64,000 bases of DNA from NCBI GenBank assembly GCA_015056945.1, contig SVFH01000010.1:1-64000 (forward strand). The letters run 5' to 3'. Position 1 is the first letter of the stretch; each line of letters opens with the position of its first letter. The notes under the pieces were generated by a model that was not told where the DNA came from, searched no databases, and saw only the letters and a list, made by a program, of their open reading frames with translations. Positions 46,181 through 63,060 of this stretch are shown one piece after another. Position numbers and translations under genes: made by a program. This stretch comes from Lachnospiraceae bacterium (GTDB lineage: Bacteria > Bacillota > Clostridia > Lachnospirales > Lachnospiraceae).

Positions 46181-46227
46181 TACCGCTGCCTCCCCGCACA
46201 CGAATATTACAAATTCTTCTTATGTAT

Positions 46228-46295: not shown

Positions 46296-49133
46296 TTACG
46301 GTTCACTTCCCGACACAAGCATATCCCGATAATAAACTGCTATTTTTTCTGCACCAAAGGCAGAATAATCATTGGAAAAATTCATTTCGCTCCAATCTTC
46401 TTTTGCCACACGGACCTGAATCGTCCATTCATCACCGGGTTTTATTTCCAGTGCAGAATCAGAGGTAATGGAAAGATTTGTATCTGCATGTTTTCCGCCA
46501 TCGGAAATTGCATGAAATTCTCCCTTCACAGACTCTGTTACAGCCACATAGCCGCTTCCCGAAATTGCCGAATGATCACACCAGAATTGTAATGTCTTAT
46601 CGGAATCCTTGGTAAAATAATAATCCAGTTTCAATTCTGACAGAGAAAGAGCATTCTTGCCTGTATTTTTTATTGTGAAAAATACAGAAATCGTCGAACC
46701 GCTTCCTTGTGAAGACTGATTCTCCACCTTTAATGAAATACCTTCTCCCTCAGTTGTTGCCGCACCTGATTCCGGTTGCTTTACTGATTCCTCCTCTTTC
46801 GGAGTTTCTGACGGTTTGGGCACTTCTGCTTTTTCATTGTTTTTTCCGTCTCCGGAAGGTTCATTGCCGTAAACAAGGATACCGTTTTCATACAATGCCA
46901 TATGAGAAGCCTGCTTCAATGCATTTCCCGATGTTCCTGAAATATCACGGTAAGAATAATCGTTTTCGGGATTCCATTCGGGAGTAGCCGTTATTCTGAA
47001 CTGTACTTCCTTTTTATAGCTATCCTGTCCGCCGGGGTAAATCGGCGTATCTCCAAATGAAATTTCTGCATAATAGATATGCGCTTTCTCATCCCACGGC
47101 AATATACCTGACGCAGTTCCGCCCTGACTGTAATTAGTGGAAAGTTTCACATCTGCAATACTTTTTCCTGCTGCATACAATTCGGATAAATCAATGAAAT
47201 ACCTAAGCGAAACATTTTTCATTGTACGCGCAGGCCACGCGGAACGGTTCATCACATATGCCTTCACTTCCGTATGGTCATTTCCTTGTGTATTGATAGC
47301 TGCTTCGATACAAATCTCATCCTCAGCAGATTCTTCCACCGCGCCGAAGTCCACCAGGGTTTCACCGCCATATTCCCGGTACATTCTGGCAAGTGCTCCG
47401 GTGAAACCGGCATTATAGTCACATGCTACCTCATTATTCACATAATTTGACACTTCATCGTTATAAGCATCATTACTGTCCGGTCCTCCTACCAAAGCAC
47501 CGTATAACGTATGCCGTGCTTTGGCGGGCTCATTCATATTATTTGCATATGAACCCTGTGCGGTTCTGTGGTGCGGATTCACCGGATAAGCATCTCCAAA
47601 ACCGATTTGATACGAAAATCCCGTACTTCCAAGCGCATAATTTACCTGCGCAAGTGCAAAATCAAAATAGATTTCCTTTTTACTTGCCGTACAAACATCC
47701 GTATCGCTGTATACAGCTGCAACAAAAGCAGCAGTTGTCGAATAACGCAACGCTCCCCAGCTGTCTAACCACGCCAGTCCTTTCGGCGTATACGTAATCC
47801 GTTCTCCATTCACTCCTGTTGTCCAATAATCAAGACATTTTTCAACATGTTCTGCAAAAGACCGGTCGTTCGTTTCTTTCGCCAGTAAAAGCGCTGCTCC
47901 GAGAGAAACATCATCCCAGCAATACATCCATTTGTAATCCTTTGCCGTCTGCTCATAAGAAGCCTTCGCTTCCTCAAGATACTTAGTGTCTTCAGTTGCA
48001 AGATAAAGCCACATACCTGCCCATGCCAATTCATCATAAAAACCACTGTGCGAATTATAAAATCCGTTTGCTGCAACGTAGCCTGCATCACTTTTGGTTG
48101 AAAATGCAAACTCATATAATTCCTTTGCATGCTGTAAGCACAATGCCGCATATGCTTTGTCTTCCTTCTCAAAAACAACGGAAGCAGAAGCCAATGCTGC
48201 TGCCGCCTGCGCGGAAACAGCAGACCCCGGATTCGCACGATCTACCTTATAAGACGGACGGTTCATATTCATTACTTCCGCCGGCCCCCACCAGGAATGA
48301 TCTGCCGAACCTTCTCCCACCTGATAGTAAAAAACATCTTTCTCAGGATGGCACTTTATCAGATAGTCATTAATCCATCTGAGCGTATCTAATAAATATG
48401 GCAACTGTCCGCTCTCCTGATAGCTTTCCTTATCTTCATAACAGGACCATGCCAGGGTTGATGCAGTATATGCCATCGGAAGATTAAACTTCACATGATC
48501 TCCCGCATCATACAATCCGCCGGACAAATCAAGTCCTGCATCCTTTCCGTCATCAAGCGCAGAATCACCGCGCCAGTTACAACGTGTTTGCTCGGGCAAA
48601 TCTCCGGAACGCTGCAATTCATAAAACAGAATCGACTTTTGCAAGGCTTCACCGTAATTATATTCTCCCGTTCCCTTTCTTCCTTCATAAGTACTTGCAT
48701 GTTCAGAAAGATTTCCGGTTTGATTAACATGATTTTCTGATTCCTTCTCATCATTTGTGCTTGTTTGTTCCGGCTGATTTGTTTGCGAATCTTCCTCTGA
48801 TACAACCGCCTCCGCTTGTACCGTATTCGCTTCATCCTTCTTGTCTTTTCCGGATTGCACCTGCATATAAACAGTAAAAATCACACCGGCCAATAACAAC
48901 AAAATGATTAACACAATAATAATCTTGGTTTTTGGTTCAAGCTTTGCATATTTAATCGGGTCATTCGAACGAGCCTGTTCCTCTTCCATCAATCTTCGAA
49001 ATTTACTCAATGCCATTTCTTGTGCAATCTGCTCATTCGTCGCACCATTCTTTTTATCTTCCTGCTGTTCTTGCGTTTCTGTTTCCTTACTCTGTTCTAT
49101 TTGTTCTTCAACAGATTCCTTTTCATTTGTCAA
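46296..49133 (-). CDS. Membrane-anchored GH9 endoglucanase with two CBM3-like modules
   Basis: A 945-residue cellulase. An acidic cytoplasmic tail (1-68) is followed by one membrane helix (about 69-91) with the catalytic part outside, a type II anchor instead of a cleaved signal. The GH9 domain (about 157-590) has SGGLYDAGDHVKF (Asp209, Asp212) and the acid Glu568 in NNEVACDYNAGF. A CBM3c-like module (about 603-757) is joined to it, as in processive GH9 enzymes. An Asn/Glu/Pro-rich linker and a second CBM3-like module (about 798-943) follow. The start is TTG, chosen because AGAGG lies 8 nt upstream and no ATG occurs for 39 codons. It is the last gene of the ECF sigma operon. It would keep cellulose hydrolysis at the cell surface, feeding the cellobiose phosphorylase. 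Confidence 0.92.
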   Translation of the reverse strand: MTNEKESVEEQIEQSKETETQEQQEDKKNGATNEQIAQEMALSKFRRLMEEEQARSNDPIKYAKLEPKTKIIIVLIILLLLAGVIFTVYMQVQSGKDKKDEANTVQAEAVVSEEDSQTNQPEQTSTNDEKESENHVNQTGNLSEHASTYEGRKGTGEYNYGEALQKSILFYELQRSGDLPEQTRCNWRGDSALDDGKDAGLDLSGGLYDAGDHVKFNLPMAYTASTLAWSCYEDKESYQESGQLPYLLDTLRWINDYLIKCHPEKDVFYYQVGEGSADHSWWGPAEVMNMNRPSYKVDRANPGSAVSAQAAAALASASVVFEKEDKAYAALCLQHAKELYEFAFSTKSDAGYVAANGFYNSHSGFYDELAWAGMWLYLATEDTKYLEEAKASYEQTAKDYKWMYCWDDVSLGAALLLAKETNDRSFAEHVEKCLDYWTTGVNGERITYTPKGLAWLDSWGALRYSTTAAFVAAVYSDTDVCTASKKEIYFDFALAQVNYALGSTGFSYQIGFGDAYPVNPHHRTAQGSYANNMNEPAKARHTLYGALVGGPDSNDAYNDEVSNYVNNEVACDYNAGFTGALARMYREYGGETLVDFGAVEESAEDEICIEAAINTQGNDHTEVKAYVMNRSAWPARTMKNVSLRYFIDLSELYAAGKSIADVKLSTNYSQGGTASGILPWDEKAHIYYAEISFGDTPIYPGGQDSYKKEVQFRITATPEWNPENDYSYRDISGTSGNALKQASHMALYENGILVYGNEPSGDGKNNEKAEVPKPSETPKEEESVKQPESGAATTEGEGISLKVENQSSQGSGSTISVFFTIKNTGKNALSLSELKLDYYFTKDSDKTLQFWCDHSAISGSGYVAVTESVKGEFHAISDGGKHADTNLSITSDSALEIKPGDEWTIQVRVAKEDWSEMNFSNDYSAFGAEKIAVYYRDMLVSGSEP

Positions 49134-49153
49134 AGTAAGTTTCCTCTCTTTAC

Positions 49154-52138
49154 TTATTCTCTTTCTTTCAGTCCGTTTAATAACGCTTTGGTATCAAGAC
49201 GATTATTTGCCGGGGCCGAACTTTCTTTTGTCGTTGTTTTGGTTTCCTTTTTCGGCTCTTCATTACGTTTCCAAACTTTCACCTGTGTCGCGTTCTTCTC
49301 CTTCACTGCCGCAACAGTTGCTGCTTTTGGGGTTGTTGACGTTGTCTTAGCTGCTTCAGGCGTATTGCCCTTTTGCACAGGCTTTGCAACCGGCGTCTGT
49401 TGTTTTGGTTTCGCCGTCTGCGTCGTTGTCTGCGGCATAACCGCCTCTTTCTTTAAGCCTGAAAGTTGTGAAACATAAGAGGGCTGTTCTGCAACAGGCT
49501 GTTTGTCCGCTTTTTTCTTTTTGTGCTTTTCGGGGGACTGTTCTTGCACAACGCTTTCTTTCTTCTTTCTCGTTCCCGCCATTGCAAATATTTTGGTCCA
49601 GTCAATATGGAATCGTCTGAATGCAATATCCACAAGGAAAAATAACGTTGCCAGCACAAGGAGCGGCGTTGCCAGATTCCATCTGCTCTTCACATGCTCC
49701 GGCTGTGTAGCAAATACTTGCGCGGCTTCTTCAACAAATACACCTCCAACCGACGCAATATACTCCTCTAACAGTGTATTATCCGGATAAAAACGATATT
49801 CCATGGAATACTGCATAATTGCCGCAGTATTCGTACTGCTTACAATTTCTCCTCCATCCAGTTGTTTAACATTGATTGTATATATTCCCGTCTTATCCGT
49901 AGGAATCTCCACCTCATATTCGCCGGGTTTCAGAGGATCAAGCTCTACATCATAAGACTGACCCGCATCATCATAAATCGTCGCAGTAACCTCTGTATTT
50001 CCGTCATACTTTTCTGTTTTATATTTAATTGTTGCATGACTGCCATTTTGAACAACCTCTGTAAAAGTACCATCCATTGTCATATCTGTGGTAAGATACT
50101 CAATAATATTGTGCCACAATAACGGAGTATTTTCCCAACCGGAATAATTTGATGACCATTCGCCGGTTACATCAGAAGTCCATGCAACCGATTTGCCAAG
50201 TCCATACTGCCAGTAGGCAAGAATCGGATCTCCGCTCGGGCTTTGCAACACTTCAATCGAACGTTCCTTAGGGGTTGTGGCAACATATCCTAAAAGGTTC
50301 GGCAAACCGTCTGCCGCAACATCACGGATAATCACATCATTCGCCGTTACAACCGGCGTAAATTCTTCATTTACAAGATATGTATTGGAAGAAAGGAATA
50401 CTTCCTGTGCAAAAATTCTGGGAATATCAGAATTAATATCCGTCATATAACTTCTTCCATTACAGGATTCAGCAAGATACTCCATCAAAGAAGTATTGCA
50501 TCCGGTGCCGACAGCAACAGTGGAAAGTGTAATTCCGGCCCTGTTAATCTGCTCAATCAACTCATCATAGTCAGAATTCGACATACCATCCTGTCCGTCT
50601 GTAAGCAGCAGAATATGTTTCACCATTGCATCGCACGCTGTGACATCCGTAGCAGCCTCCAAAAGCGCAGGATAAATTGAAGTTCCGCCATCTATTCCAA
50701 TCGTAAAAATGCTTTGCGAAATTGCATCTTTATCCGTTGCCAGCTGCAAAGGTACCACTTTATCAAAATTATCATCAAAAGACATGACCCCGATATAATC
50801 CGATTCCCTGACATTTTCTACCGCTGCATTTGCAGCCTCTTTAGCCAAATCAAGATTCGTGATAAAGCCATTGCCGTCACTCATACTGCCCGACTGGTCA
50901 ATCACCAGCTGCATTGCCATAACCGGAACTTCGTTTTCCCCCTGCAATTCCATATATACGGGCAATACTTCTTCAATCGGCGTATCCCTGTAATTACCGA
51001 GTGCGAAACTGTTTTTTCCTCCTGTAGCAACAAATCCGCCGCCATAGTTTTTCACATAATCCTTCAGATGTTCCGTAAACCCTTCTCTTAAATCATCTGC
51101 ATACACATCGATAAAAATAATACCGCCGTACTCCATGAAATCTGACATCGTATTCGGCACGGTAGAGGGTGCTACCACATCATATAATTTACCCATACTG
51201 TTCAAAATATGCTTCAGTTCCTCTGCATTTCCGGCTTCTCCTTCTACAATCAAGAGCGGTTGCGCCACTTCAATACTGGTAAAAGAAGAAAACTCATTGT
51301 TTACGGAAACCGTATCCGAAAGAGCATCTACAGTAACACGATAAGTCTTAAGACCTTCATCTGTCTGTGTATCCTTAAAAACAAATCTGTTTGTTCCTTT
51401 TTGTAAATTAACCTGCTGCTGTCCTTTCAGGGTTCTTCCCGAATACAGACTTACGGTTGCGGAACAGGCAACATTACTTTCTACTTCGACATTAATGTTG
51501 AAATTCTCTCCGACACCAACTTCCTTCGGAATATTCATATCACTGACATACACTTCAGAAGCATTGTTTTCAGCCAGTTTAAGCACCTGGAAATCACATC
51601 CGGATGCGACAACATTTGCTGCCGTTTTACGCAAATCACCTTCATTTTCATTACCATCTGTAATCAAAACAATTCTTTTTGCACTTTCTTCAGGTAACTC
51701 AGCAAGCGCGATTTTAACAGCTTCTTCAAGGTCGGTCGCTTCCCTCGGAACATCCGTCTGAAACTCAGTAAACGAAAGCTCTCTGTCTACATATTGTTCC
51801 ACTCTCGGAGCTTTACCAAAAGCAATTACACCGATATAATCTCTCTTCCCTTTTTGTTTAACCGCTTCATTTACAAATCTGATTGCTTCGCTGCGTTGCT
51901 CTTTCACACTATCGGAAACATCCACAAGAAAAATGGTAGTGACATTTTTACCTACCCATTTAACGGACAACTGACTAAGTGCAAGAATAAGCATAATTGC
52001 AAGAATACTTCTGACAATAACGGTTCCGATTGCAGCTCTTTTATTTTGCACCAGCATAAAACGCATCGATATGATTAACAGAATAATTACCGCAGGAATC
52101 AGCAAAAGATACCACGGGTTTTCAAATGTAATATTCAT
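49154..52138 (-). CDS. Large membrane protein with two vWA domains and a GATase1-like domain
   Basis: A 994-residue envelope protein, BatA-like at the N-terminus. Two membrane helices (about 9-28, 40-56) precede a vWA domain with an intact MIDAS (Asp73-x-Ser75-x-Ser77, Thr135, Asp161). A beta-rich region, a GATase1-like Rossmann segment (about 292-400) and a second vWA with another complete MIDAS (Asp414-x-Ser416-x-Ser418, Thr486, Asp514) follow, then an Ig-like beta domain, a membrane helix near 840-862 and a cytoplasmic Lys/Ala/Thr-rich tail of about 120 residues. vWA partners of MoxR ATPases bind clients through metal sites. GGAGGAATAAG precedes the ATG. The gene lies between a second vWA gene and the cellulase. 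Confidence 0.85.
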   Translation of the reverse strand: MNITFENPWYLLLIPAVIILLIISMRFMLVQNKRAAIGTVIVRSILAIMLILALSQLSVKWVGKNVTTIFLVDVSDSVKEQRSEAIRFVNEAVKQKGKRDYIGVIAFGKAPRVEQYVDRELSFTEFQTDVPREATDLEEAVKIALAELPEESAKRIVLITDGNENEGDLRKTAANVVASGCDFQVLKLAENNASEVYVSDMNIPKEVGVGENFNINVEVESNVACSATVSLYSGRTLKGQQQVNLQKGTNRFVFKDTQTDEGLKTYRVTVDALSDTVSVNNEFSSFTSIEVAQPLLIVEGEAGNAEELKHILNSMGKLYDVVAPSTVPNTMSDFMEYGGIIFIDVYADDLREGFTEHLKDYVKNYGGGFVATGGKNSFALGNYRDTPIEEVLPVYMELQGENEVPVMAMQLVIDQSGSMSDGNGFITNLDLAKEAANAAVENVRESDYIGVMSFDDNFDKVVPLQLATDKDAISQSIFTIGIDGGTSIYPALLEAATDVTACDAMVKHILLLTDGQDGMSNSDYDELIEQINRAGITLSTVAVGTGCNTSLMEYLAESCNGRSYMTDINSDIPRIFAQEVFLSSNTYLVNEEFTPVVTANDVIIRDVAADGLPNLLGYVATTPKERSIEVLQSPSGDPILAYWQYGLGKSVAWTSDVTGEWSSNYSGWENTPLLWHNIIEYLTTDMTMDGTFTEVVQNGSHATIKYKTEKYDGNTEVTATIYDDAGQSYDVELDPLKPGEYEVEIPTDKTGIYTINVKQLDGGEIVSSTNTAAIMQYSMEYRFYPDNTLLEEYIASVGGVFVEEAAQVFATQPEHVKSRWNLATPLLVLATLFFLVDIAFRRFHIDWTKIFAMAGTRKKKESVVQEQSPEKHKKKKADKQPVAEQPSYVSQLSGLKKEAVMPQTTTQTAKPKQQTPVAKPVQKGNTPEAAKTTSTTPKAATVAAVKEKNATQVKVWKRNEEPKKETKTTTKESSAPANNRLDTKALLNGLKERE

Positions 52139-52158
52139 CTTATTCCTCCAGCCTTCCC

Positions 52159-53961
52159 CTATTTACGAAGGTATGCAATCCACTCTACTCCCAAGAATAA
52201 AAGGGTTATCAGGATAATAATATTTCTCAAATTCAACACACCGCTTACCGAGGTTTTTACCATATCCTCTCCCTCAGACATTGCTGTCGGTATCTGGGAT
52301 ACACTGCTTTCCGTTCCCGGAAAATTCACGGCAAATGCCTCCTGCAGCATTCCTTTTCCCGTGTTCTGTCTGACATGGTAGATTCCTGTCTGCGCGGTAT
52401 CCGCAAATCCCCAATGAAAATCACGTAACTCCTGCTCCTTGCCATCCGGCAACACAACTACGGGAAGTGACTCGTTCATTTTACCGAAAATATTAACGGA
52501 ATCACCCGGATAATACTTGCCGCCCTCCACAAGACTTTGTCTTGAAGTCGCATTCAGCATATTATAAACCAGCACCGGGAATTCTGTTTTGAGAGGAAGA
52601 TCAGAATTATGCAAATCAAATCCCAAAACGCAAACATTCCTTTTCTCATATTCTCCTGCAAATGCAACCGTATGGGTACCTGTTTGAAAAACGGCATCTG
52701 CCCAGTCCGGCACCTGATATGCATACGTATCGCTTACGCCAAAATTTAAATCCTCCAGATACTGTGTCATCTCATGTTCCTTGGGTTCTACCAATACGCC
52801 CTGCAAAAGAGCATCAAACGCAAACAATTCCGTCTCTTTTATATTCATAAAAATCATGCTTCCCTGTTCCGGTAAAACATCGGGAACCATACCATCAAAA
52901 ATATATACGTCATATTCCTGTTTCTTAAAATCATCAAAAGACAAAATATCATTTGATTTTGTCACATTAATTCCCTGTAAAATTCCCATTGCCTTTTCAA
53001 GATAAAGATTGGCTTCCGTCATAAAAAGAACTTCTGTCACATTATCCTCTTCGAGTACATCATACGCAATATTATCACCCGGTAAAGAATCTTTCGAAGA
53101 CAATTCAACCGATACTGTTCTTCCCTGATAATTGAAATCATCGAAATATACAATCTGACTGTCTCCTGCCGGTACGGCTACAGACAATATCTGTAACAGT
53201 GTATCATTACCGTATAAATTCACATCCACCACAACGTCTTTGGTTCCGTAGTTGCAGATTTTGGAAAGAATAACAAGCTTGCCTTCATTGTATCCATGAC
53301 TGACATAGTCAATTCCGACATTTTCCGTTACACTATATAAATCAACAATATATCCCGTAATCTCTTCCATGGACGCATATGTATCCGTAAAACAAACCGT
53401 TTCAACACTTTTCCACTGGGTTTGCATCGTACGCACCATTTCAAGTCCGGCATGTGCATCTCCGGGATTTGCCGTCTGCGGAATCGAACGAATTTTTTCA
53501 ATTGCCTGATTTTTATTATCTCCGTTACTGTATAAAAGAGTTCCGTCTACAGAAGAAGCAATTACCGTAATTCCGGTTCCGGAACGAAGATCTTTGACAT
53601 AAGCAACCGCTTCCTCAATCGCCACATCCAGACGTGTTTTATCACCTTCATAGATTGTACTCATTCCGGCACTGTTATCAATCACGATTACTGCATGGTC
53701 TGCGCCGACTCCGCCTTTCAGAAAGAAAGGGGAACATATTGCAAAAATCAAAATACATAACGTAATAATCTGTAAAATCAGTAGCCAGTTCTTTTTCAGT
53801 TTTTCCCATGGGGTATTCGCTTCTGCGTTCTGATACATTTCGTTCCACAAAAAAAGCGACGATACCGGGCGTTCAACTGCCCGCTGTTTCAGTAAATACA
53901 TGATAATAATCACCGGAATCAGCACAAGCAGAAACAACGGCCATAAATATGTTAATTTCAT
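52159..53961 (-). CDS. BatA-like vWA membrane protein
   Basis: A 600-residue envelope protein. Helices at about 5-23 and 60-80 flank a segment rich in basic residues (BatA N-terminal domain). A vWA-like domain follows, whose metal motif reads Asp95-x-Ser97-x-Gly99, so the third MIDAS residue differs from the classic Ser. A long beta-rich extracytoplasmic region and a C-terminal helix (NIIILITLLFLGVEWIAYL) complete the protein. It pairs with the larger vWA protein downstream as BatA does with BatB in MoxR clusters. AAGGAG precedes the start. The 15-bp spacing from the DUF58 gene shows co-transcription. Confidence 0.85.
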   Translation of the reverse strand: MKLTYLWPLFLLVLIPVIIIMYLLKQRAVERPVSSLFLWNEMYQNAEANTPWEKLKKNWLLILQIITLCILIFAICSPFFLKGGVGADHAVIVIDNSAGMSTIYEGDKTRLDVAIEEAVAYVKDLRSGTGITVIASSVDGTLLYSNGDNKNQAIEKIRSIPQTANPGDAHAGLEMVRTMQTQWKSVETVCFTDTYASMEEITGYIVDLYSVTENVGIDYVSHGYNEGKLVILSKICNYGTKDVVVDVNLYGNDTLLQILSVAVPAGDSQIVYFDDFNYQGRTVSVELSSKDSLPGDNIAYDVLEEDNVTEVLFMTEANLYLEKAMGILQGINVTKSNDILSFDDFKKQEYDVYIFDGMVPDVLPEQGSMIFMNIKETELFAFDALLQGVLVEPKEHEMTQYLEDLNFGVSDTYAYQVPDWADAVFQTGTHTVAFAGEYEKRNVCVLGFDLHNSDLPLKTEFPVLVYNMLNATSRQSLVEGGKYYPGDSVNIFGKMNESLPVVVLPDGKEQELRDFHWGFADTAQTGIYHVRQNTGKGMLQEAFAVNFPGTESSVSQIPTAMSEGEDMVKTSVSGVLNLRNIIILITLLFLGVEWIAYLRK

Positions 53962-53976
53962 TGTTAACTCCTTACA

Positions 53977-54846: not shown

Positions 54847-54861
54847 CTGAAAATTCCACCC

Positions 54862-55842
54862 TTATATCTTAATTGTAGAAATAATCTCTTTGACAATTGC
54901 ATCCGCATCCATTCCGTCTGCTAAGGCCTCGAAACTAAGAACAAGACGATGACGCAATGCCGGCAGCGCTACACTCTTAATATCATCAAAGGATACGTTG
55001 AAACGACCTTCCATTAATGCTTTGGCACGCGCAGTCTGATAAATAGCTTGTGCCGCTCTCGGGCTTGCGCCGCAGGTTACATATTTTTTCACATAGTCAC
55101 TTGCACCCTCAACCTCAGGATGAGTTGCTACCACAAGCTTAAGTGCAAACTCAGCTACTGAATCCGTCATGGGAATATCTCTTACAACAGAACGAATTCT
55201 TATAATTTCTTCTCCGTTTAATATCGGATTAATCTGTACCTGCTGATTGGTTACTGTTATATTCATGATTTCCTTTAACTCTTCAAGTGACGGAAAATCA
55301 ACTTTAATCTTAAAAAGAAAACGGTCAAGCTGTGCTTCCGGCAGCGGATAGGTTCCTTCATTTTCAATCGGGTTCTGTGTTGCCAGTACCATAAAAGGCT
55401 CGTCCAAACAGTACGTTTCCGTACCAACCGTTACAGTATGCTCCTGCATCGCTTCCAAAAGTGCCGACTGAGTCTTGGGTGTCGCACGGTTAATTTCGTC
55501 TGCCAGCAACAGATTTGCAAATACGGGACCTTTCTGGAAACGGAATACATTCTTTCCGTCTTCTTTTACAATCAAATTGGTACCTGTTACGTCAGCAGGC
55601 ATAAGGTCCGGTGTGAACTGGATTCTTGAAAAATCCATCGCACAAACGCAGGCAATAGTTTTTACCAACTGCGTTTTACCAAGTCCCGGCACACCTTCCA
55701 ATAAAACATTACCCCCCGAAAACATTGCAAGAAGCACCTGTCGGATTACTTCCTTTTGTCCAATGATTCCTTTCCCGATTTCAGCTTCTGCCATGTTAAT
55801 TCTGTTTATAATTTCCAATAATTCGTTTTCATTCTGAACCAT
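54862..55842 (-). CDS. MoxR family AAA+ ATPase
   Basis: A 326-residue AAA+ ATPase of normal MoxR size. Walker A is LEGVPGLGKTQLVKT, Walker B is LLADEINRATPKTQSALLEA, sensor 1 is in FMVLATQNPIENEGTYPLPE, and an arginine finger lies in AQLDRFLFKI. MoxR proteins act as chaperone-like motors that mature metal- or cofactor-containing complexes together with vWA partners. It lies in the conserved MoxR-DUF58-vWA order. AAGGAG precedes the ATG, 33 bp after the repeat protein gene. Confidence 0.94.
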   Translation of the reverse strand: MVQNENELLEIINRINMAEAEIGKGIIGQKEVIRQVLLAMFSGGNVLLEGVPGLGKTQLVKTIACVCAMDFSRIQFTPDLMPADVTGTNLIVKEDGKNVFRFQKGPVFANLLLADEINRATPKTQSALLEAMQEHTVTVGTETYCLDEPFMVLATQNPIENEGTYPLPEAQLDRFLFKIKVDFPSLEELKEIMNITVTNQQVQINPILNGEEIIRIRSVVRDIPMTDSVAEFALKLVVATHPEVEGASDYVKKYVTCGASPRAAQAIYQTARAKALMEGRFNVSFDDIKSVALPALRHRLVLSFEALADGMDADAIVKEIISTIKI

Positions 55843-55875
55843 TTCTATTCTCCTTCTCTTCCGATTCTTTGAAGC

Positions 55876-57396
55876 CTATTCATTTAATCCCGAAAAATAA
55901 TCTCGAATCAGGGATTTCATGGAATCCGGAAGCTTACTGTTTTGAAGATTATTGTAGGCACGATTGGTATATTCGCCAATCACACGGCTAAATTCCACGC
56001 TGTTTCCGCTCCATGCAAATGCCTGATCGGATTGTGCCATATAGGAATCCCCCTCTTTATTTGCCTGTCCGTTCAAATTCTCATTGTAAGGCATATCATC
56101 TCCAACCATAACACGCTCTCCGCTTCGGTTATTTGTTGTCTCATTACCATACTTACTGCCTTGATCCCAACCGGATCCACTGCCCTGCTGGCCCTGCTGA
56201 CCTTGTTGGCCCTGTTGGCCTTGCTGGCCTTGCTGACCCTGCTGACCCTGCTGACCTTGTTGGCCCTGCTGACCCTGCTGGCCTTGCTGCCCCTGCTGAC
56301 CTTGCTGGCCTTGTTGGCCCTGCTGGCCCTGTTGGCCTTGCTGACCCTGCTGGCCTTGCTGGCCCTGCTGACCTTGCTGACCCTGCTGACCTTGTTGGCC
56401 CTGCTGACCTTGTTGGCCCTGCTGGCCTTGCTGACCGATCTGCGATTGTCTATCCTGTGCAAACTGCTTAATCTTTTCCTGTGTTTCGGGAGACAACGCA
56501 CCATTTTCTTCCATTTCTTTCTGAATCTGCTCCATCAGCTCTTTTTCAGCTTCATTTCTGGCATTCTCTTTCATTTGTTCAAGCATTTCGGATATTTCCT
56601 GTTGCTCACTCTTGGTAATACCATCTTCTGATTTCGACTCAACCGCATTCTCTAATGCCTTCGCCTCATTATATGCATCTAATGGTTCTTTAAACTGTTC
56701 AGCAAGTTTATTTTGGAATCGTTCTTCCACCTTGGCAATCTGCTCGGAATCCGTAACTCCTTCCAGTTCCTGAAGCGTTTTTTTATACAGTTCTTCCAAC
56801 GCCTTTTCCTGCTCTGCAGTCAAATCGTAACGTTCCTTTAACTCCTCTATCATATTCTCAAGCTCTTCCGCTTTTTCATCTATCTCTTGCTGTAATTCAT
56901 GCTGCTCACGCGCTTCTTCCTTGGTTGCTGCCGGAAACATTGCGGTTGTTACGGTAAAGGTAAGCGCCGCAAACAATGCGAAAAAGACTCTTTTCCGAAT
57001 TTTTAGCGGAAACGATTTATTAATCTGTATGTTTTTAATTCTTGCGAGAGTGTCACTCTTTTGTAATTCGCTGAAAAAGTCTGTTTTTCCTGCAAGCTCA
57101 TATGATGTTGTGACACGTTCCTTTAATCCTTTTGCATCAATTGCAAGAGAAGTCCTGCGCATATTCGGATATTGTCTGTACGCCCAGATAAAACCACCCA
57201 GCAAAGAAACGCAAAACGCTGCCAAGCCATATAACATTGCACCGTAAAACGGCACAAATAAAGCAATTGTATTTAACACACCCCACAGAAAAATACCGAT
57301 ACAGAGTGCCCAAAGCATGGTTTTCACACGAATATTATGACAAAGTCTTTTACGGACTTTTTTAATGAACTGCAAAATCTGACGGTCTTTCTCCAT
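55876..57396 (-). CDS. Membrane protein with coiled coil and 28 Gly-Gln-Gln repeats
   Basis: A 506-residue protein. Membrane helices lie at about 27-48, 51-72 and 137-155. An acidic coiled coil runs from about 160 to 318, then 28 perfect GQQ triplets (321-404), and a tail ending DSMKSLIRDYFSGL. The plan (N-terminal helices, helical stalk, Gln/Gly-rich low complexity) resembles DUF4175/TIGR02302-type proteins, which are described in alphaproteobacteria and, as I recall, occur near MoxR clusters. The start overlaps the permease gene by 35 bp and has GGAGGAG upstream. It sits between the ABC permease and MoxR. The Gly-x-y pattern is collagen-like, but without proline. Confidence 0.8.
   Translation of the reverse strand: MEKDRQILQFIKKVRKRLCHNIRVKTMLWALCIGIFLWGVLNTIALFVPFYGAMLYGLAAFCVSLLGGFIWAYRQYPNMRRTSLAIDAKGLKERVTTSYELAGKTDFFSELQKSDTLARIKNIQINKSFPLKIRKRVFFALFAALTFTVTTAMFPAATKEEAREQHELQQEIDEKAEELENMIEELKERYDLTAEQEKALEELYKKTLQELEGVTDSEQIAKVEERFQNKLAEQFKEPLDAYNEAKALENAVESKSEDGITKSEQQEISEMLEQMKENARNEAEKELMEQIQKEMEENGALSPETQEKIKQFAQDRQSQIGQQGQQGQQGQQGQQGQQGQQGQQGQQGQQGQQGQQGQQGQQGQQGQQGQQGQQGQQGQQGQQGQQGQQGQQGQQGQQGQQGQQGSGSGWDQGSKYGNETTNNRSGERVMVGDDMPYNENLNGQANKEGDSYMAQSDQAFAWSGNSVEFSRVIGEYTNRAYNNLQNSKLPDSMKSLIRDYFSGLNE
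56185..56436 (-). repeat. Tandem 9-bp repeat coding for 28 GQQ units
   Basis: 252 bp made of 28 copies of a 9-bp unit (GGC CAG CAG and synonymous versions using CAA and GGT). The amino-acid repeat is perfect while the codons vary, so selection keeps the protein repeat. The array could still expand or shrink by slippage in multiples of three codons without a frameshift. Confidence 0.95.
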
Positions 57397-58381
57397 TCGA
57401 TGCTCTCCTCCTTACTTTATTCTTTTTGGCTTTCTTTTTTACCGGTTTCAAAAAGAAAGCAGCTGCACGCAACAACAAGAATGATACAAGTGCCTGTAAT
57501 AAAATACTAAAAAACGGGAACCAGCGTAACAGAATATTTTTTTCTGTAAAATGAACAAAAATCGCGCTCATGTCTTTGATTCCGTACAGCGGAGCTACCG
57601 TGTCAAAAAGTGAATAACCGAATATCTGTCCGATTGCATCAAACAAGGTTGCCAACGGATTCAAATACAAACAGGTAATAAATAAATCACCGCTTATAAT
57701 ATTTGACATTGATTTGCCGTACATTTCATATATAAAATCGCACAAAAGCGCATCTGCAATTGTCATTCCGATCATGCCCGTAAAAGTCAGCATAAATGTA
57801 ATTGCGAGCACCGCAAATACTGAAATATAGGTAAGAATAACAGACAAGACCGTATTCTTAATCAACGCCGAGAAGAAAATACCGAAAGAAGAAAAAAATA
57901 CGACTGTCGAAACCAATACCCCAAGAAGAACAATCATCTGCCACAGATTAATGCCTCCGTAAAGAAACATACTGCACAGTATCGGTAAGGTTGCTATAAT
58001 CAACATTAGCACCAGAAATACCGTTGAAAAGTATTTACCCGTAATAATCTGCCATGGTGTCATACGTGTCGTCAGAAGTACCTCCAACGTCTGACGCTCT
58101 TTCTCAATTGAAATTGCGCCTGCCGTCAAAGCAGGAATCAGAAAAACAATCGCAATCTCCATCATCCACAATATGAAACAGAAAAAGGTAATCATTGTTC
58201 TCGGTTGCATTAAACTTCCGTCTGCGAACACACCGTCTATTACCAAGGGAAGCATTGAAAAAAGAAAAAAACCAAGCGAGACTAAAACAGCGCCCAAAAG
58301 CAGAATAAAAATCTTAGGACGTTTCATGTCAAGTAACATATCTTTACGCAATACAGCATTTTTGATTTCGTATTTTTTCAT
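57362..58381 (-). CDS. ABC-2 type transporter permease
   Basis: A 339-residue polytopic membrane protein with about six hydrophobic segments, and the ABC-2 signature ISIEKERQTLEVLLTTRMTP, GKYFST in the cytoplasmic loop after the second helix. It pairs with the ATPase gene upstream, which it overlaps by 4 bp (ATGA). The tail is rich in Lys and Arg. GldF-like and NosY-like permeases have this form. It may export or position the lipoprotein or other surface parts encoded in the operon; the cargo is not known. Confidence 0.9.
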   Translation of the reverse strand: MKKYEIKNAVLRKDMLLDMKRPKIFILLLGAVLVSLGFFLFSMLPLVIDGVFADGSLMQPRTMITFFCFILWMMEIAIVFLIPALTAGAISIEKERQTLEVLLTTRMTPWQIITGKYFSTVFLVLMLIIATLPILCSMFLYGGINLWQMIVLLGVLVSTVVFFSSFGIFFSALIKNTVLSVILTYISVFAVLAITFMLTFTGMIGMTIADALLCDFIYEMYGKSMSNIISGDLFITCLYLNPLATLFDAIGQIFGYSLFDTVAPLYGIKDMSAIFVHFTEKNILLRWFPFFSILLQALVSFLLLRAAAFFLKPVKKKAKKNKVRRRASNGERPSDFAVH

Positions 58382-59337
58382 CGTGCACCTCCCTGTCTTG
58401 TTCTTGCATTTGCCGGTTGTTTCGAAACAATCTGCATAAAGAGGGATTCAAGACTTCCCTCCTGTCGCGAAAAGGAATACACAACAATATCATTATTTAC
58501 AAGAACCTTCAAAAGCTCTTTCTCATCTTCCTTGGTTCCGTCATAAGTAATACGCAATCTGTTTCCCTGCGCCGTTACGCCCTTCACTTCCGGAAGTGTC
58601 TTTAATAACTCAAATGTATCGTCAACCTGTTCCTCTCCGATTGTGACAAGTACCGGACTTGAAACTGCCGCAGCACGCTGAATTTCATCAATCGTTCCTT
58701 TTAACACCATGTGTCCCCTGTCAATAATACCAACCGTTGAACACATCTCTGCAAGCTCCGGTAAAATATGCGAACTGATTACAATAGTCTTACCCATAGA
58801 CGATAAATTCTTTAAAATTTCTTTCAATTCATATCGTGCTTTCGGATCCAAGCCACTGGCAGGTTCATCCAGGAACAATATTTCCGGATTATGTACAAGC
58901 GCTCTCGCCAGACACAAACGCTGTTTCATACCGCGCGAGAGTCCGTTTACATCTACATTTGCTTTGCCTGTCAGATTTACGAGTTCCAGCAAATCCTTAC
59001 ACAAAGTCTCTGCTTCCTTCCCGAAAATACCATAAGCAGATGCAAAAAATTCAAGATATTCCATTGCTGAAAAACTGTTATACACGCCGAAGAAATCAGG
59101 TACATATCCTATTCTTTCACTCAAAAGCTTATGGTTCGATAACACATCTTCCCCACCGATACGAACTGACCCGGCAGTTGCATCAAGCAACCCTACACAA
59201 ATTCTCATTGTTGTTGTTTTTCCTGCACCGTTTGCTCCTACAAATCCAAACAGCTCACCTTTTCCGACCGTAAGATTCAAGTCATTGACTGCAAGAAAAC
59301 GACCGTATCTTTTATATAAATGTTCTATTTGCAGCAT
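58378..59337 (-). CDS. ABC transporter ATP-binding protein
   Basis: A 319-residue ABC ATPase. Walker A is GANGAGKTTTMR, the signature is VNGLSRGMKQRLCLARALVH, Walker B is ILFLDEPASGLDPKARYE, and the H-loop is in TIVISSHILPELAEM. The family is the CcmA/NatA/GldA type that pairs with ABC-2 permeases. A C-terminal domain of about 80 residues is typical. AAGGGGGG precedes the ATG. It lies 14 bp after the lipoprotein gene and overlaps the permease gene, so the three form a unit. Confidence 0.93.
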   Translation of the reverse strand: MLQIEHLYKRYGRFLAVNDLNLTVGKGELFGFVGANGAGKTTTMRICVGLLDATAGSVRIGGEDVLSNHKLLSERIGYVPDFFGVYNSFSAMEYLEFFASAYGIFGKEAETLCKDLLELVNLTGKANVDVNGLSRGMKQRLCLARALVHNPEILFLDEPASGLDPKARYELKEILKNLSSMGKTIVISSHILPELAEMCSTVGIIDRGHMVLKGTIDEIQRAAAVSSPVLVTIGEEQVDDTFELLKTLPEVKGVTAQGNRLRITYDGTKEDEKELLKVLVNNDIVVYSFSRQEGSLESLFMQIVSKQPANARTRQGGAR

Positions 59338-59351
59338 CTCTTTTTCCCCCC

Positions 59352-61703
59352 TTATTTAGTAATCGCATTATCCTGAACCATGCAAATCACTTCAGCACAA
59401 TTCTCACGATACTTGCTCGTTTCCTGATATATTCCCTTTTCAGTTTTGGCCGGTACCGCAGCAAAAACTCTCATATTGGAGGACTCCAAATCTGTTGAAT
59501 CCATGAAATACATCATTTCATTCTTCATGTCAATAAACTCAGAGGAAGCGATAATTCCCAACACACCTCTGTGATAAGAATTATACTGGGGAGAAAGGGA
59601 ACCGAGGAATAAGCCGCTCATTACATCAAACATGTTTTCCTCCCTGTACTTTTTTGAAACTTCTTCCTCTATGGAATAGCGCGAAACATATTCATTTTCT
59701 GTTACGGTAACCGTTTCTCCGCTCTTAATTTCTCCGATATAAAAAAGCTTCGAATCCGCATAAATATATGCCGCTTCCAAATCTACACCGTAATTATTTG
59801 TTACCGCATAGGCATCAGAAGCCGTATGCTTAACTTCAATCTCCTTGTCCGTATGATAAGAGTTACGTAATAAAACATTTCTGCACTTCAAAGCCGATTC
59901 GTGCTCAATAATGATTTTATTATCATCCAGTCCGTTACTGAAAGAGGATGTGTAGGAATCATAATCGCAATTTGCTTCGTCCCACGCATAATCCCACTCA
60001 TTTCCGATTCCGGTTGTAACTGCATATTGTTTTGGCAAAGATACTTCATAACGTTTATCATTCGGGACAATAATACCCATCATGCTGGTTTTGGAAACAA
60101 CCGGCCCCTGGAGTTCCAAAACACTTACCACATTCAGGTAAGGTCGTAATAATCTTGTTGAAAAGCCTGCACAATAAATCAATATAGCAAAGGCAACTGA
60201 AAGAATCGGATAAACTATCCATAATCTTGTTGTTTTTTTCTTTTTGCTGTATACAATGTAAAACGCGATAATTGCAACCAGATACCCTAAAAAGAAAATG
60301 CCGTAAACAACAATTGACGGAATCTGTGCTCCGGAAGTAAGTTCCCCAAGACGGTTCTTGAAATCTTCCAAAAAATAACCGTTTTCATTTATACTATTCA
60401 TTTCTTTGATTGCGTCCTGCACAATGAAAACAAACAAATCTTCATTCCCCTCATAACGACTCAACGGATTCTTTGTGAAATCAACTGTCGCCAGAAAGAT
60501 ATTTCCGCTTCCTATCGGCAAAGTATAGCCCAACGGAAATGTTTTTGAACTATTCTCAATTTCTGCTTCAAAAACGGATTTCACCACAGAAGAATCTATG
60601 TTAAGTGCAAGGACATCACCTTCCACATAAGGCAGTTCTTCCTGTTGCTTGGATTTGTTTTCGAAATCTTCCAAATACAAACCATACAGGTAAAATTCAT
60701 AAAAGTACTCCTCAAAACAATACCAGTAAAACTCTTCTCTGATATCCCCATCCGGAGCATCATTCTGATAATCTTCTTGTGTATATCCATAAATATCAAG
60801 GAACCGTGTTAAATAGAATTCCTCCAATGCCGCTATATCGCTTAGATAAATCTCATCAAACACCTTCTCATAATTCTCATCACCATACGGGGATTTGTTC
60901 TCATAAAGTTCTTCCGGAAGCGCACTTGCTTCCGTTCTCAGCGAAAGACCGAATTTCGTACTATATTTCTGTAAGTCTCCCGGCTGAACCTCAAAGAAAT
61001 CATGATTCAATTTAGAAAGTGTTTTATTATATGTACTACCCGTTCCTACAATCAGGAAACCGCCATCACTGTTCCAAAGACGTAATGCTGAAATCTGATG
61101 ATCTGTCAAAATATCTGTACTAAAGTCAGACACCACAATAACATCAAGCATGTCAAGCGCATGCGCATCATCAGGAAAACTCTCCGCATTCATTTCATAT
61201 ATTCTGGTTTTATATGACGGAAACAGCGGAGATGTCTGACGATCCATATACCCAAGCGCCGTATAATCGTCTGACAGGATTCCGACATTTATATCTTCAT
61301 TTACATCTGTAACATCTACCAGAAACAGCTTTTTCCATACAATATTTTCTGCATCTTCGCCAATTCTGATATTTACATTATGAATCTTTTCCGGAATTTC
61401 TCCCACAAGCATAACACTCTTTGTTGCTCCCGCAGGAATGGAAATTTCTTTCTCATAAAGCGCATTTCCGGTTGCATTCGGTACAATCAGCTGTATTGTT
61501 CCGCCGAAATCCTTTCCGTGATTGGTAACATCAATATAAAAAGGTGCATAAGAGCCCATTCTGAGTGAATTACCATAACCATATTTCAAATTTACCTCAA
61601 AACGTTCCATGTCAATCTTATCTTTTCCGCAGGCGCTAAGCATTACTGCAAAAAGAAGTGTGACAAGTAGTATCAATATACTTTTTTTCATATTTGTTTT
61701 CAT
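59352..61703 (-). CDS. Large lipoprotein with a central double membrane helix
   Basis: A 783-residue protein of unknown function. It starts MKTNMKKSILILLVTLLF with a classic lipobox (LSAC, Cys25), so it is lipid-anchored at the N-terminus. A beta-rich N-terminal part, a Rossmann or GATase1-like segment (about 140-240) and an acidic middle part follow. Two membrane helices lie at about 455-475 and 484-505, and the C-terminal 280 residues are again outside. The mixture recalls auxiliary subunits in MoxR/ABC clusters (GldG-like), but this is only an architectural resemblance. The start at 61703 has GGGG 8 nt upstream; the ATG at 61724 is too close to its own AAAGGG. It is third in the operon. 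Confidence 0.75.
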   Translation of the reverse strand: MKTNMKKSILILLVTLLFAVMLSACGKDKIDMERFEVNLKYGYGNSLRMGSYAPFYIDVTNHGKDFGGTIQLIVPNATGNALYEKEISIPAGATKSVMLVGEIPEKIHNVNIRIGEDAENIVWKKLFLVDVTDVNEDINVGILSDDYTALGYMDRQTSPLFPSYKTRIYEMNAESFPDDAHALDMLDVIVVSDFSTDILTDHQISALRLWNSDGGFLIVGTGSTYNKTLSKLNHDFFEVQPGDLQKYSTKFGLSLRTEASALPEELYENKSPYGDENYEKVFDEIYLSDIAALEEFYLTRFLDIYGYTQEDYQNDAPDGDIREEFYWYCFEEYFYEFYLYGLYLEDFENKSKQQEELPYVEGDVLALNIDSSVVKSVFEAEIENSSKTFPLGYTLPIGSGNIFLATVDFTKNPLSRYEGNEDLFVFIVQDAIKEMNSINENGYFLEDFKNRLGELTSGAQIPSIVVYGIFFLGYLVAIIAFYIVYSKKKKTTRLWIVYPILSVAFAILIYCAGFSTRLLRPYLNVVSVLELQGPVVSKTSMMGIIVPNDKRYEVSLPKQYAVTTGIGNEWDYAWDEANCDYDSYTSSFSNGLDDNKIIIEHESALKCRNVLLRNSYHTDKEIEVKHTASDAYAVTNNYGVDLEAAYIYADSKLFYIGEIKSGETVTVTENEYVSRYSIEEEVSKKYREENMFDVMSGLFLGSLSPQYNSYHRGVLGIIASSEFIDMKNEMMYFMDSTDLESSNMRVFAAVPAKTEKGIYQETSKYRENCAEVICMVQDNAITK

Positions 61704-61739
61704 TTCGTCTTCCCCTCGTTTCATTTTCCCTTTCTGAAT

Positions 61740-62441
61740 TTATTCACTGTATTCTTCCAGTATTTTCAAAACCGACTCACCTGAATCCACGCTCACACAG
61801 GCAATGTAACGTTCGCCGCTCATAAGTGAAAAACCTTCCGTCGATTCGCACTCACATAAATACATTCCGTCTTCTCCCGAAAGCTCATACTCTTTTGCAA
61901 TCTCGGAAGCGTAATCATCGAGAATGGAAAAAGTCACAAATGTATCCTGCACTTTAACAACCTCAATTATAATCTCCCGTTCCGGCAGTGAAACTGCATC
62001 TTCTAACATCTCGCCGGATGCAATTGCATCCGCGTCATTTTGAATCACACTTTCCGGTGCATAGCTTTCATTCGAATCCGTTGCATCATTCGCAACATAC
62101 TCCTCTGCCGCAGAATCACATCCTGCCATTTCCGCAGGTGCACTATCCATCGACTTATTTCCAACAAGCAGCGACATCCCTATCGGTAGTAAAATTACCC
62201 CCAACAGACACGCGGCCATGACCGGCAATACGTATACCATCCAACGCATTGAACTCTTTTTGGCATTTCCGGCAGCAGACACGGGAACTTCTTTAATGAT
62301 TTCACGCTCCGGCTTTGTTTCGGACTCTTCCGGTAATACTTCTTTATCACCTGTTTTGATTCCTGCTTCAATACGGCTCCACAAATCAGGAAGTTCATTC
62401 AGTAATTCAGTTTTATAACATTCTTCAAACGATTTACTCAT
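61740..62441 (-). CDS. Putative membrane anti-sigma factor
   Basis: A 233-residue single-pass protein: a cytoplasmic N-terminus (1-65), a membrane helix (about 68-93), and an acidic extracellular part ending in a small beta domain. The topology and position after an ECF sigma gene, with an 8-bp overlap (ATGAGTAA), fit an anti-sigma factor. No HxxxCxxC zinc motif is seen, so it is not of the ZAS type. The GGAGG site lies 7 nt upstream. The extracellular domain is the likely sensor. Release of the sigma factor by proteolysis is inference. Confidence 0.75.
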   Translation of the reverse strand: MSKSFEECYKTELLNELPDLWSRIEAGIKTGDKEVLPEESETKPEREIIKEVPVSAAGNAKKSSMRWMVYVLPVMAACLLGVILLPIGMSLLVGNKSMDSAPAEMAGCDSAAEEYVANDATDSNESYAPESVIQNDADAIASGEMLEDAVSLPEREIIIEVVKVQDTFVTFSILDDYASEIAKEYELSGEDGMYLCECESTEGFSLMSGERYIACVSVDSGESVLKILEEYSE

Positions 62442-62958
62442 AACCGTACCTCCTTAATTTTTTCATGGCATTCTGATAACGCCATGTCACCGTCCCCAGA
62501 GGAATCGAAAGCACCTCTGAAATTTCCTGAAAAGTCATCTCTCCAAGCACTTTCATGTCGACAATACATCGTTCGTTTTCCTTAAGATGTTTCAATGCCT
62601 CCATGACTGTCACTTCACCGACAACTGTTTTTTCTACATTCTGTGATGCATCTGCTTCCTGAATATCCTCTTCCATGGGAATTTCCCTGCGATGCTTTCT
62701 CAGAAAATCCAATGCCATATTTCTTGCTATTGTCGCAAGCCATGCGCGATGGGAATTACCTTTTTGATACGAGGAAGCGCTGTTCCATAGCCTGATGAAA
62801 AAATCTGCCGTTACGTCTTCCGCATTCTCCTTATTTCCCAGAATACCGAAAATAATTGTATAAATATAACCCAGATAGTTTTCATAAACCTTTTTCAGCC
62901 CATCCTGATTTCCCAGCCGCATTTGCTCCACACACTGCTCAAATTCGTGCTGTTCCAT
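62434..62958 (-). CDS. ECF sigma factor, first gene of the MoxR/vWA/cellulase operon
   Basis: A 174-residue sigma-70 family protein with only regions 2 and 4. Region 2 has NAEDVTADFFIRLWNSASSY and HRAWLATIARNMALDFLRKH. Region 4 has MTFQEISEVLSIPLGTVTWR followed by a basic recognition helix. It is first in the operon, before a putative membrane anti-sigma factor, the usual pairing. AGAGGA stands close to the ATG. It is transcribed from a sigma-A-like promoter. I could not find a convincing ECF-type promoter to show autoregulation. Confidence 0.93.
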   Translation of the reverse strand: MEQHEFEQCVEQMRLGNQDGLKKVYENYLGYIYTIIFGILGNKENAEDVTADFFIRLWNSASSYQKGNSHRAWLATIARNMALDFLRKHRREIPMEEDIQEADASQNVEKTVVGEVTVMEALKHLKENERCIVDMKVLGEMTFQEISEVLSIPLGTVTWRYQNAMKKLRRYGYE

Positions 62959-63060
62959 TTTCCTCTTTGACGTTTCTAAAAAAGATACGTATTTCCTTCC
63001 TGTTATTTATGGATTATTCGTGCATTTTTTAGTTCTTTCCTATGCACATAAACCCATATT

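What the first reader, a model, noticed from the sequence alone, without database searches (positions are those of the whole stretch)
46296..62958. A 16.7-kb operon joining an ECF sigma factor, an ABC-2 exporter, a MoxR/DUF58/vWA machine and a membrane-anchored cellulase
Eleven minus-strand genes run without a promoter-sized gap: ECF sigma, membrane anti-sigma-like protein, lipoprotein, ABC ATPase, ABC-2 permease, GQQ-repeat membrane protein, MoxR, DUF58, two vWA membrane proteins and a GH9 cellulase. Several pairs overlap by 4-35 bp. MoxR-DUF58-vWA sets are known chaperone-like systems, and ABC-2 plus ECF regulation are known separately. Their union with a cell-bound cellulase is what I find new. 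The inferred idea is that the AAA+ and vWA parts assemble or activate surface enzymes under an envelope-sensing sigma factor.
Basis: partly seen in the sequence, partly recalled or inferred. Interest (0 to 1): 0.8.

Follow-up and report, generated by a model that had tools for sequence, protein, structure and literature searches.

The report
Sigma-controlled envelope operon plus passenger cellulase
In a group of uncultured gut and rumen bacteria, a sigma factor appears to switch on both an envelope machine and a set of surface lipoproteins, and a cell-bound cellulase lies at one end of the machine's operon or the other in some species but not in others.

Summary
In detail: eleven same-strand genes fill 46296-62958 with gaps of -35 to +33 bp, domains as described.

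The 10-gene unit from sigma to the second vWA protein is found, whole or in part, in all 31 held species of the genus. GH9 directly follows it in 6 (the window's clade), lies upstream of sigma in 14, is elsewhere in 10 and was not found in 1. Of 32 sampled family genomes outside the genus with the large vWA gene, none has GH9 on the same contig. The cellulase is an optional, clade-specific addition.

New here: a promoter, CCATAA-N16/17-CGTATCT, upstream of sigma. Elsewhere in the genus 46 of 98 examined copies precede a lipoprotein gene (44 of 74 outside large ORFs), against 0 of 31 control sites and 6 of 314 background genes. Serpin, DUF4349 and vWA lipoproteins recur. Unlinked GH9 loci show no copy; in the upstream clade it lies between GH9 and sigma.

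Best reading: an envelope-sensing sigma co-expresses lipoproteins with a Gld-like ABC/MoxR/vWA machine that probably acts on them or on the membrane; the cellulase is at most co-expressed.

The parts
62983..63012 (-). ECF-type promoter CCATAA-N17-CGTATCT, 24 bp before the sigma gene's ATG
   Evidence: Upstream of sigma in all 24 genus genomes examined: 20 exact, 4 variants (G012, G017, G022, G026). 69 strict copies in the genus against 4 for the reversed pattern (rows summed).
62434..62958 (-). ECF sigma factor, 174 aa
   Evidence: Sigma70_r2 and r4_2; TIGR02937 90.8 bits, cut-off 42.9
61740..62441 (-). anti-sigma-like protein, 233 aa, one TM (69-87), overlaps sigma by 8 bp
   Evidence: no Pfam or NCBIfam hit. 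Recurrent N-terminal P(D/N)LW.(R/K)I in relatives.
59352..61724 (-). 790-aa envelope protein: lipobox in this clade, two C-terminal TM; weak DUF7408/DUF4350 similarity in relatives only
58378..59337 (-). ABC ATPase, GldA/DrrA-like
   Evidence: ABC_tran, DrrA1-3_C; TIGR03522 225.6 bits, below its cut-off of 402.6
57362..58381 (-). ABC-2 permease, GldF-like
   Evidence: ABC2_membrane_2; TIGR03518 39.6 bits, below its cut-off of 288.5
55876..57396 (-). membrane protein with GQQ tandem repeat (repeat array 56183-56433)
54862..55842 (-). MoxR AAA+ ATPase
   Evidence: AAA_3 208.5 bits, AAA_lid_2
53977..54846 (-). DUF58 protein with DxSxS motif, no TM segment found
52159..53961 (-). BatA-type vWA membrane protein, 600 aa
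   Evidence: BatA, VWA_2; 3 TM
49154..52138 (-). large membrane protein, 994 aa, two vWA motifs plus GATase1-like domain
   Evidence: DxSxS at both places in 29 of 30 genus copies, the other being a fragment with the first only; 3 TM
46296..49133 (-). membrane-anchored GH9 cellulase with CBM3; clade-specific last gene
   Evidence: GH9 483.1 bits, CBM_3 105.7 bits; TM 71-89; directly after vwa2 in 6 of 31 genus genomes

Best explanation
Genes 1-10 form a conserved envelope module of this Lachnospiraceae genus; gene 11 (GH9) is an optional passenger. Mechanism: a membrane anti-sigma senses a change at the cell surface and releases the ECF sigma, which reads CCATAA-N16/17-CGTATCT. This raises its own operon and a set of secreted lipoproteins (serpins, DUF4349 and YfbK-type vWA lipoproteins and others). 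The co-induced machine (Gld-like ABC exporter, 790-aa envelope protein, MoxR ATPase, DUF58 and two vWA membrane proteins) then extracts, assembles or maintains surface lipoproteins or the membrane around them. In the window's clade GH9 would simply be co-transcribed as the last gene. Shown: gene content and order, domain families, the promoter and its association with lipoprotein genes, the changing position of GH9. Inferred: that this sigma reads the promoter, what is sensed, and what the machine acts on.
For: The unit was found, whole or in part, in all 31 genus species and lies on one contig from sigma to vwa2 in 15. GH9 has four neighbourhoods in four clades. The promoter sits upstream of sigma in all four clades. 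Of 98 non-operon sites (all 45 strict ones in the genus, and all 53 further relaxed ones in eight genomes), 46 precede a lipobox gene; outside large ORFs 44 of 74. Controls: 0 of 31 reversed-pattern sites, 6 of 314 background genes. The hits in the first 79 sites fall into 15 unrelated lipoprotein clusters. Serpin, DUF4349 and YfbK/vWA were confirmed by Pfam in each member scanned (7, 5 and 2). Outside the genus the regulator differs while the machine stays, which points to a general envelope task.
Against: No transcript data. The promoter is assigned to this sigma only because it precedes the sigma gene; another ECF sigma could share it. The lipoprotein link is seen in this genus only. Sites in related species are not independent, so the Fisher p of 7e-27 overstates the case. 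26 of the 31 control sites lie inside large ORFs, so the like-for-like control is only 0 of 5. More than half of the 98 sites do not precede a lipobox gene, and the relaxed pattern has a sizeable chance share (207 sites against 82 for its control). Eight of 20 outside loci have the 790-aa/ABC part with no MoxR part in the stretch fetched. GH9 at one end or the other in 20 of 31 genomes is more linkage than a mere passenger needs.
Confidence: 0.5

Rival explanations
1. One reading: the AAA+/vWA machine assembles or activates the cell-bound cellulase.
For: GH9 is next to the operon in 20 of 31 genus genomes, at one end or the other. GH9 copies with an intact N-terminus carry a TM anchor, so they share the machine's membrane.
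Against: In 10 of 31 genus genomes GH9 is elsewhere while the machine is kept. 32 sampled family genomes outside the genus keep the large vWA gene without GH9 on the same contig. Close GH9 homologues occur in genomes without a vwa2 hit, e.g. G141 and G444. GH9 has a one-pass anchor of its own and no obvious need of a chaperone (inference).
Confidence: 0.08
2. Selected co-expression: linkage was gained independently in clades A and B, or was ancestral and lost in C and D, because surface cellulase and envelope machine are needed together. There is no physical contact.
For: Two of four GH9 locations flank the same operon in the same direction. The core and RpoB trees separate A from B, and RpoB groups B with D at 98. 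GH9 gives the same four groups, so it was probably inherited and moved rather than swapped between clades.
Against: In clade B the promoter is downstream of GH9, so the two arrangements do not give the same regulation. Unlinked GH9 loci have no copy of the promoter at up to 1 mismatch (upstream side cut off in 1 of the 10). One local rearrangement of a linked block could explain both ends.
Confidence: 0.25
3. The ABC-2 exporter is a defence or detoxification pump under an ECF switch, and MoxR/vWA serves an unrelated complex; lipoproteins are a general envelope-stress regulon.
For: The ATPase scores highest with a DrrA-type drug exporter model, below its cut-off. In 8 of 20 outside loci the 790-aa, ABC and permease genes stand without a MoxR part in the stretch fetched.
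Against: The ABC and MoxR halves lie together in 15 genus genomes and in 10 of the 20 outside loci; 2 of the 20 were too short to tell.
Confidence: 0.17

Closest known systems
Bat/MRP operons (MoxR-DUF58-vWA; Bacteroides, Riemerella, Francisella)
   Same: MoxR, DUF58 and BatA-type vWA proteins in one operon; linked to stress tolerance (PMC11834572: abstract and passages seen)
   Different: No TPR protein found here; joined to an ABC-2 exporter, a 790-aa envelope protein and an ECF sigma; the large vWA protein also carries a GATase1-like domain
Gliding-motility ABC transporter GldA-GldF-GldG (Bacteroidota)
   Same: GldA is the second-best NCBIfam match of the ATPase and GldF the best of the permease; a large envelope protein is encoded beside them
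   Different: Both scores are far below the family cut-offs; DUF4350-type similarity of the third protein is weak and seen in relatives only; gliding or T9SS genes were not searched for
NorQ/NorD, CbbQ/CbbO, RavA/ViaA MoxR-vWA chaperones
   Same: MoxR ring plus vWA partner with MIDAS motif that remodels a client (PMC9976466: passages seen)
   Different: NorQ and NorD are described there as most likely cytosolic; here two partners are membrane proteins whose vWA domains probably face outward (charge reading, inference)
GH9/CBM3 cellulases
   Same: Complete GH9 domain, CBM3 and catalytic motifs
   Different: Anchored by an N-terminal TM segment; placed next to an envelope operon in some species

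Membership tests
MoxR AAA+ ATPase | AAA_3 domain with lid | tested here: met
   PF07726 208.5 bits (cut-off 27), PF17863
Bat/MRP operon | MoxR + DUF58 + BatA-type vWA side by side | tested here: met
Bat/MRP operon | TPR protein in the operon | tested here: not met
   No TPR match in the 11 proteins at E 0.001
GldA/GldF transporter | scores above NCBIfam equivalog cut-offs | tested here: not met
   225.6 vs 402.6 and 39.6 vs 288.5 bits
GldG/DUF4350-type accessory protein | DUF4350/DUF7408 domain | tested here: inconclusive
   DUF4350 in 8 and DUF7408 in 9 of 15 aligned members at E up to 1, best E 0.0038 and 0.0004; neither in the window's own protein. AF2 model weak, mean pLDDT 53.5
ECF sigma factor | regions 2 and 4, ECF superfamily score | tested here: met
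Anti-sigma factor | binds and inhibits the cognate sigma | not testable with these tools
   Only gene overlap, one TM and a recurrent N-terminal motif
GH9 cellulase | GH9 domain with catalytic motifs, CBM3 | tested here: met
Collagen-like protein | Gly-X-Y repeat forming a triple helix | tested here: inconclusive
   PF01391 passes its cut-off, but the repeat is GQQ without proline, and relatives have other Q/G/E/N-rich runs or no long run

The most novel reading that the evidence does not exclude
The operon is a dedicated surface-lipoprotein system of Gram-positive gut bacteria. One ECF sigma switches on the lipoproteins and, with them, a Gld-like ABC plus MoxR/vWA membrane machine that displays, sorts or quality-controls them, and a cell-bound cellulase has been recruited to this programme twice, at opposite ends of the operon.
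Probability: 0.25. Interest if true: 0.75.

Novelty: new variant of a known kind. Interest (0 to 1): 0.5.

Why it matters
MoxR/DUF58/vWA operons are widespread, but their clients in Gram-positive bacteria are largely unknown (recalled). A conserved promoter that ties such a machine to named lipoprotein genes gives a short list of candidate clients and a reporter for finding the inducing signal. It also shows how a cellulase can sit inside an envelope programme in some species and outside it in their relatives.

Tried and rejected
Rejected: GH9 as a fixed last gene. Rejected: GH9 carrying its own copy of the promoter where unlinked (10 loci, up to 1 mismatch, spacers 16-17; in G018 the GH9 start is off the contig). 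Thought unlikely: transfer of GH9 between clades, because the GH9 tree gives the same groups. Left open: fold of the 790-aa protein. The AF2 model from 3 sequences was weak, and its PDB search gave TM-scores of about 0.1 to the query, glycoside hydrolases on top and CARDB-like domains further down; a sequence search of solved structures found nothing. The sigma-70 consensus scan was no better than shuffles (47 against 45.6, sd 5.8). Papers: searches found no paper with all terms; one found one on mycobacterial peptidases; two listed MoxR papers on other operons, 60 gliding papers, 66 ECF papers, and the ten shown in 88 were off the point. I opened two and saw the rest as listings only; the library lacks most subscription journals. 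The root of the clades is uncertain: core proteins with outgroups put A against the rest, the GH9 outgroup falls with B+D. RpoB was found in 21 of 31 genomes and two fragments were dropped. My scripts label the gene at 63186-63638 'FMNb'; that was a guess and Pfam finds nothing. Only 2 of these 19 precede a lipobox gene, so 44 of 79 became 46 of 98. I also corrected a statement that the ABC and MoxR halves are together in most outside clusters (10 of 20); for that I moved rival 3 from 0.15 to 0.17 and rival 2 from 0.27 to 0.25.
Full report
Observation. Three pairs overlap (4, 8 and 35 bp) and the other gaps are 14-33 bp. Pfam and NCBIfam confirm the named domains, except that the anti-sigma-like protein and the 790-aa protein match nothing. 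GH9 carries one N-terminal TM segment and its catalytic motifs. The next gene downstream (45494-46201, weakly sigma-like) lies 94 bp away. No minus-strand terminator-like site was found between it and GH9, so the 3' end of the unit is not proven.

Genus comparison. The genus holds 31 species with a genome in the collection, the window's included. Three named records whose contigs match G002, G012 and G030 in length are Lachnospiraceae metagenome assemblies. The large vWA protein is found over most of its length in 28 of 30 relatives, as fragments in G021, and not in G015. G015 also lacks the smaller vWA protein although it is rated complete; its contig begins inside the GQQ gene. Fetched loci were mapped by BLAST against the window's proteins. 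The unit from sigma to vwa2 lies on one contig in 15 of 31 genomes; in most of the other 16 the contig ends in or beside the GQQ gene.

Position of GH9. Clade A (G000, G001, G006, G019, G027, G030; 6 of 31): GH9 directly after vwa2 and before the 235-aa gene. Clade B (14 of 31): GH9 43-134 bp upstream of the first possible start of sigma. In 6 of these 14 the whole unit is on that contig; in the other 8 the sigma half and the vWA half are on separate contigs. Clade C (8 of 31) and clade D (2 of 31): GH9 in other neighbourhoods. In three of clade C (G018, G021, G024) the contig ends inside GH9, and the visible side looks like that of the other five by gene sizes. G013 (69% complete): no close GH9 found. 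Clade D keeps flanks like those of clade A around the operon (a dapF-like gene before, the 235-aa gene and addB after), without GH9. The window itself lacks the dapF-like gene, and within clade A addB was within reach of the sequence only in the window and G027.

Trees. Seven core proteins and RpoB (19 usable genomes) separate the clades, and RpoB places B with D at 98; GH9 gives the same groups. Four clades have four GH9 positions, so at least three moves are needed; two positions flank the same operon. Whether linkage was ancestral or gained twice cannot be decided here. A rearrangement of a linked block could turn one end into the other.

Outside the genus. In 397 sampled family genomes the large vWA protein is found at E 1e-30 in 33, of which 32 are outside the genus, and a GH9 homologue at E 1e-8 in 34. 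Six genomes outside the genus have both (G032, G108, G136, G196, G227, G401), on a different contig each time; with fragmented assemblies this does not exclude linkage in each single case. I fetched 20 family loci around the 790-aa gene. Ten have a MoxR part, eight have none in the stretch fetched, and two are too short to tell. Of the ten, six (L181, L185, L186, L190, L193, L195) carry a gene pair of two-component size just before the 790-aa gene; Pfam confirmed the histidine kinase in L181, L186, L190 and L195 and the response regulator in L190 and L195, the others not being scanned. L188 has a different ECF sigma with a DUF4367 protein. L187 and L192 have no same-strand gene there, and L182 begins with a cut gene. 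So the regulator changes while the machine stays. The G107 cluster has a GH31 gene upstream, which I take as chance.

The promoter. All 24 genus genomes examined share CCATAA-N16/17-CGTATCT upstream of sigma: 20 exactly, G012, G017, G022 and G026 with variants. In clade B this lies between GH9 and sigma. The strict pattern occurs 69 times in the 31 genomes and the reversed control 4 times (rows summed). Of the 69, 24 lie upstream of a sigma gene. I examined all 45 others, and all 53 further sites of a relaxed pattern in eight genomes (G000, G003, G006, G010, G011, G022, G027, G030). The relaxed pattern has 207 sites in the genus against 82 for its control (rows summed), so a good share of it is chance.

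What the promoter precedes. Of the 98 sites, 46 are followed by a gene with a lipobox (23 of 45 strict, 23 of 53 relaxed); outside large ORFs the count is 44 of 74. Controls: 0 of 31 reversed-pattern sites, of which only 5 lie outside large ORFs; 6 of 314 background genes with at least 80 bp free upstream; 29 of 929 genes in all. The lipobox rule is strict: several of the misses (for example L110, L128 and the DUF4349 protein L141) look like lipoproteins by eye. Because sites in related species are not independent, the better measure is that the hits among the first 79 sites fall into 15 unrelated sequence clusters. The largest are DUF4349 (16 sites, 15 called lipoproteins; Pfam positive in all 5 scanned) and serpin (9 sites, all called lipoproteins; positive in all 7 scanned). 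YfbK-type vWA lipoproteins appear twice. In the window's own genome the sites are the operon, a serpin lipoprotein (C33), a cysteine-rich 160-aa protein beside a radical-SAM-like gene (C4) and, by the relaxed pattern, a DUF4349 protein (C17) and two with no suitable gene behind them.

GH9 and the promoter. In the fetched loci of the 10 unlinked GH9 genes no match with up to one mismatch was found. Several of these genes sit just after a terminator-like hairpin (by eye). So GH9 could be under this promoter only in clade A, by read-through of the whole operon.

Mechanism. vwa1 and vwa2 each have two N-terminal and one C-terminal TM segment. Charges suggest that the vWA domains face outward and the tail of vwa2 inward (inference). 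DUF58 and MoxR have no TM segment. DxSxS motifs are conserved in vwa2 and DUF58; in vwa1 three of 29, the window's included, end in G. By analogy with NorQ/NorD (PMC9976466, passages), MoxR would drive a change through vWA partners, here across the membrane together with the ABC exporter. The co-expressed lipoproteins are the obvious client candidates. This step is inference.

Verdict. The conserved thing is the sigma-controlled envelope machine and its apparent lipoprotein regulon; the cellulase is a lineage-specific addition.

Noticed in passing
G000:C33 (L102:1729-3030), L112, L114, L124, L148, L151, L166, L174, L176: Serpins with a lipobox behind the ECF-type promoter in nine loci of the genus (one sequence cluster); 7 of 9 scanned with Pfam, all positive.
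   Followed up: partly
G000:C4 (L101), L120, L147, L168, L179: A cysteine-rich protein (CxHxGxCKGTCPKCEAE), no Pfam family in the members scanned, behind the same promoter in clades A, B and D. In L101 and L120 a small radical-SAM-type protein follows (Pfam only for L120); the other three were not checked for it.
   Followed up: partly
L062:10626-13784 and other clade B loci: A large sensor with propeller repeats and an HD domain (Pfam for L062 only; L061 and L032 look alike) is encoded directly before GH9; genes of like size or their cut ends stand there in most of clade B, but not in G017.
   Followed up: no
L054, L057-L060, L065, L068: By eye, unlinked GH9 genes begin shortly after a terminator-like hairpin, leaving little room for a promoter; read-through or attenuation is possible.
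   Followed up: no
window 56183-56433: The GQQ gene stands at or near the contig end in most relatives whose operon is split, so its repeat seems to be an assembly breakpoint across the genus.
   Followed up: partly
window 45494-46201: A weakly sigma-like gene (best hit PRK12543, 32.9 bits against a cut-off of 197) follows GH9 in clade A and vwa2 in clade D; addB follows it where the sequence reaches that far.
   Followed up: no
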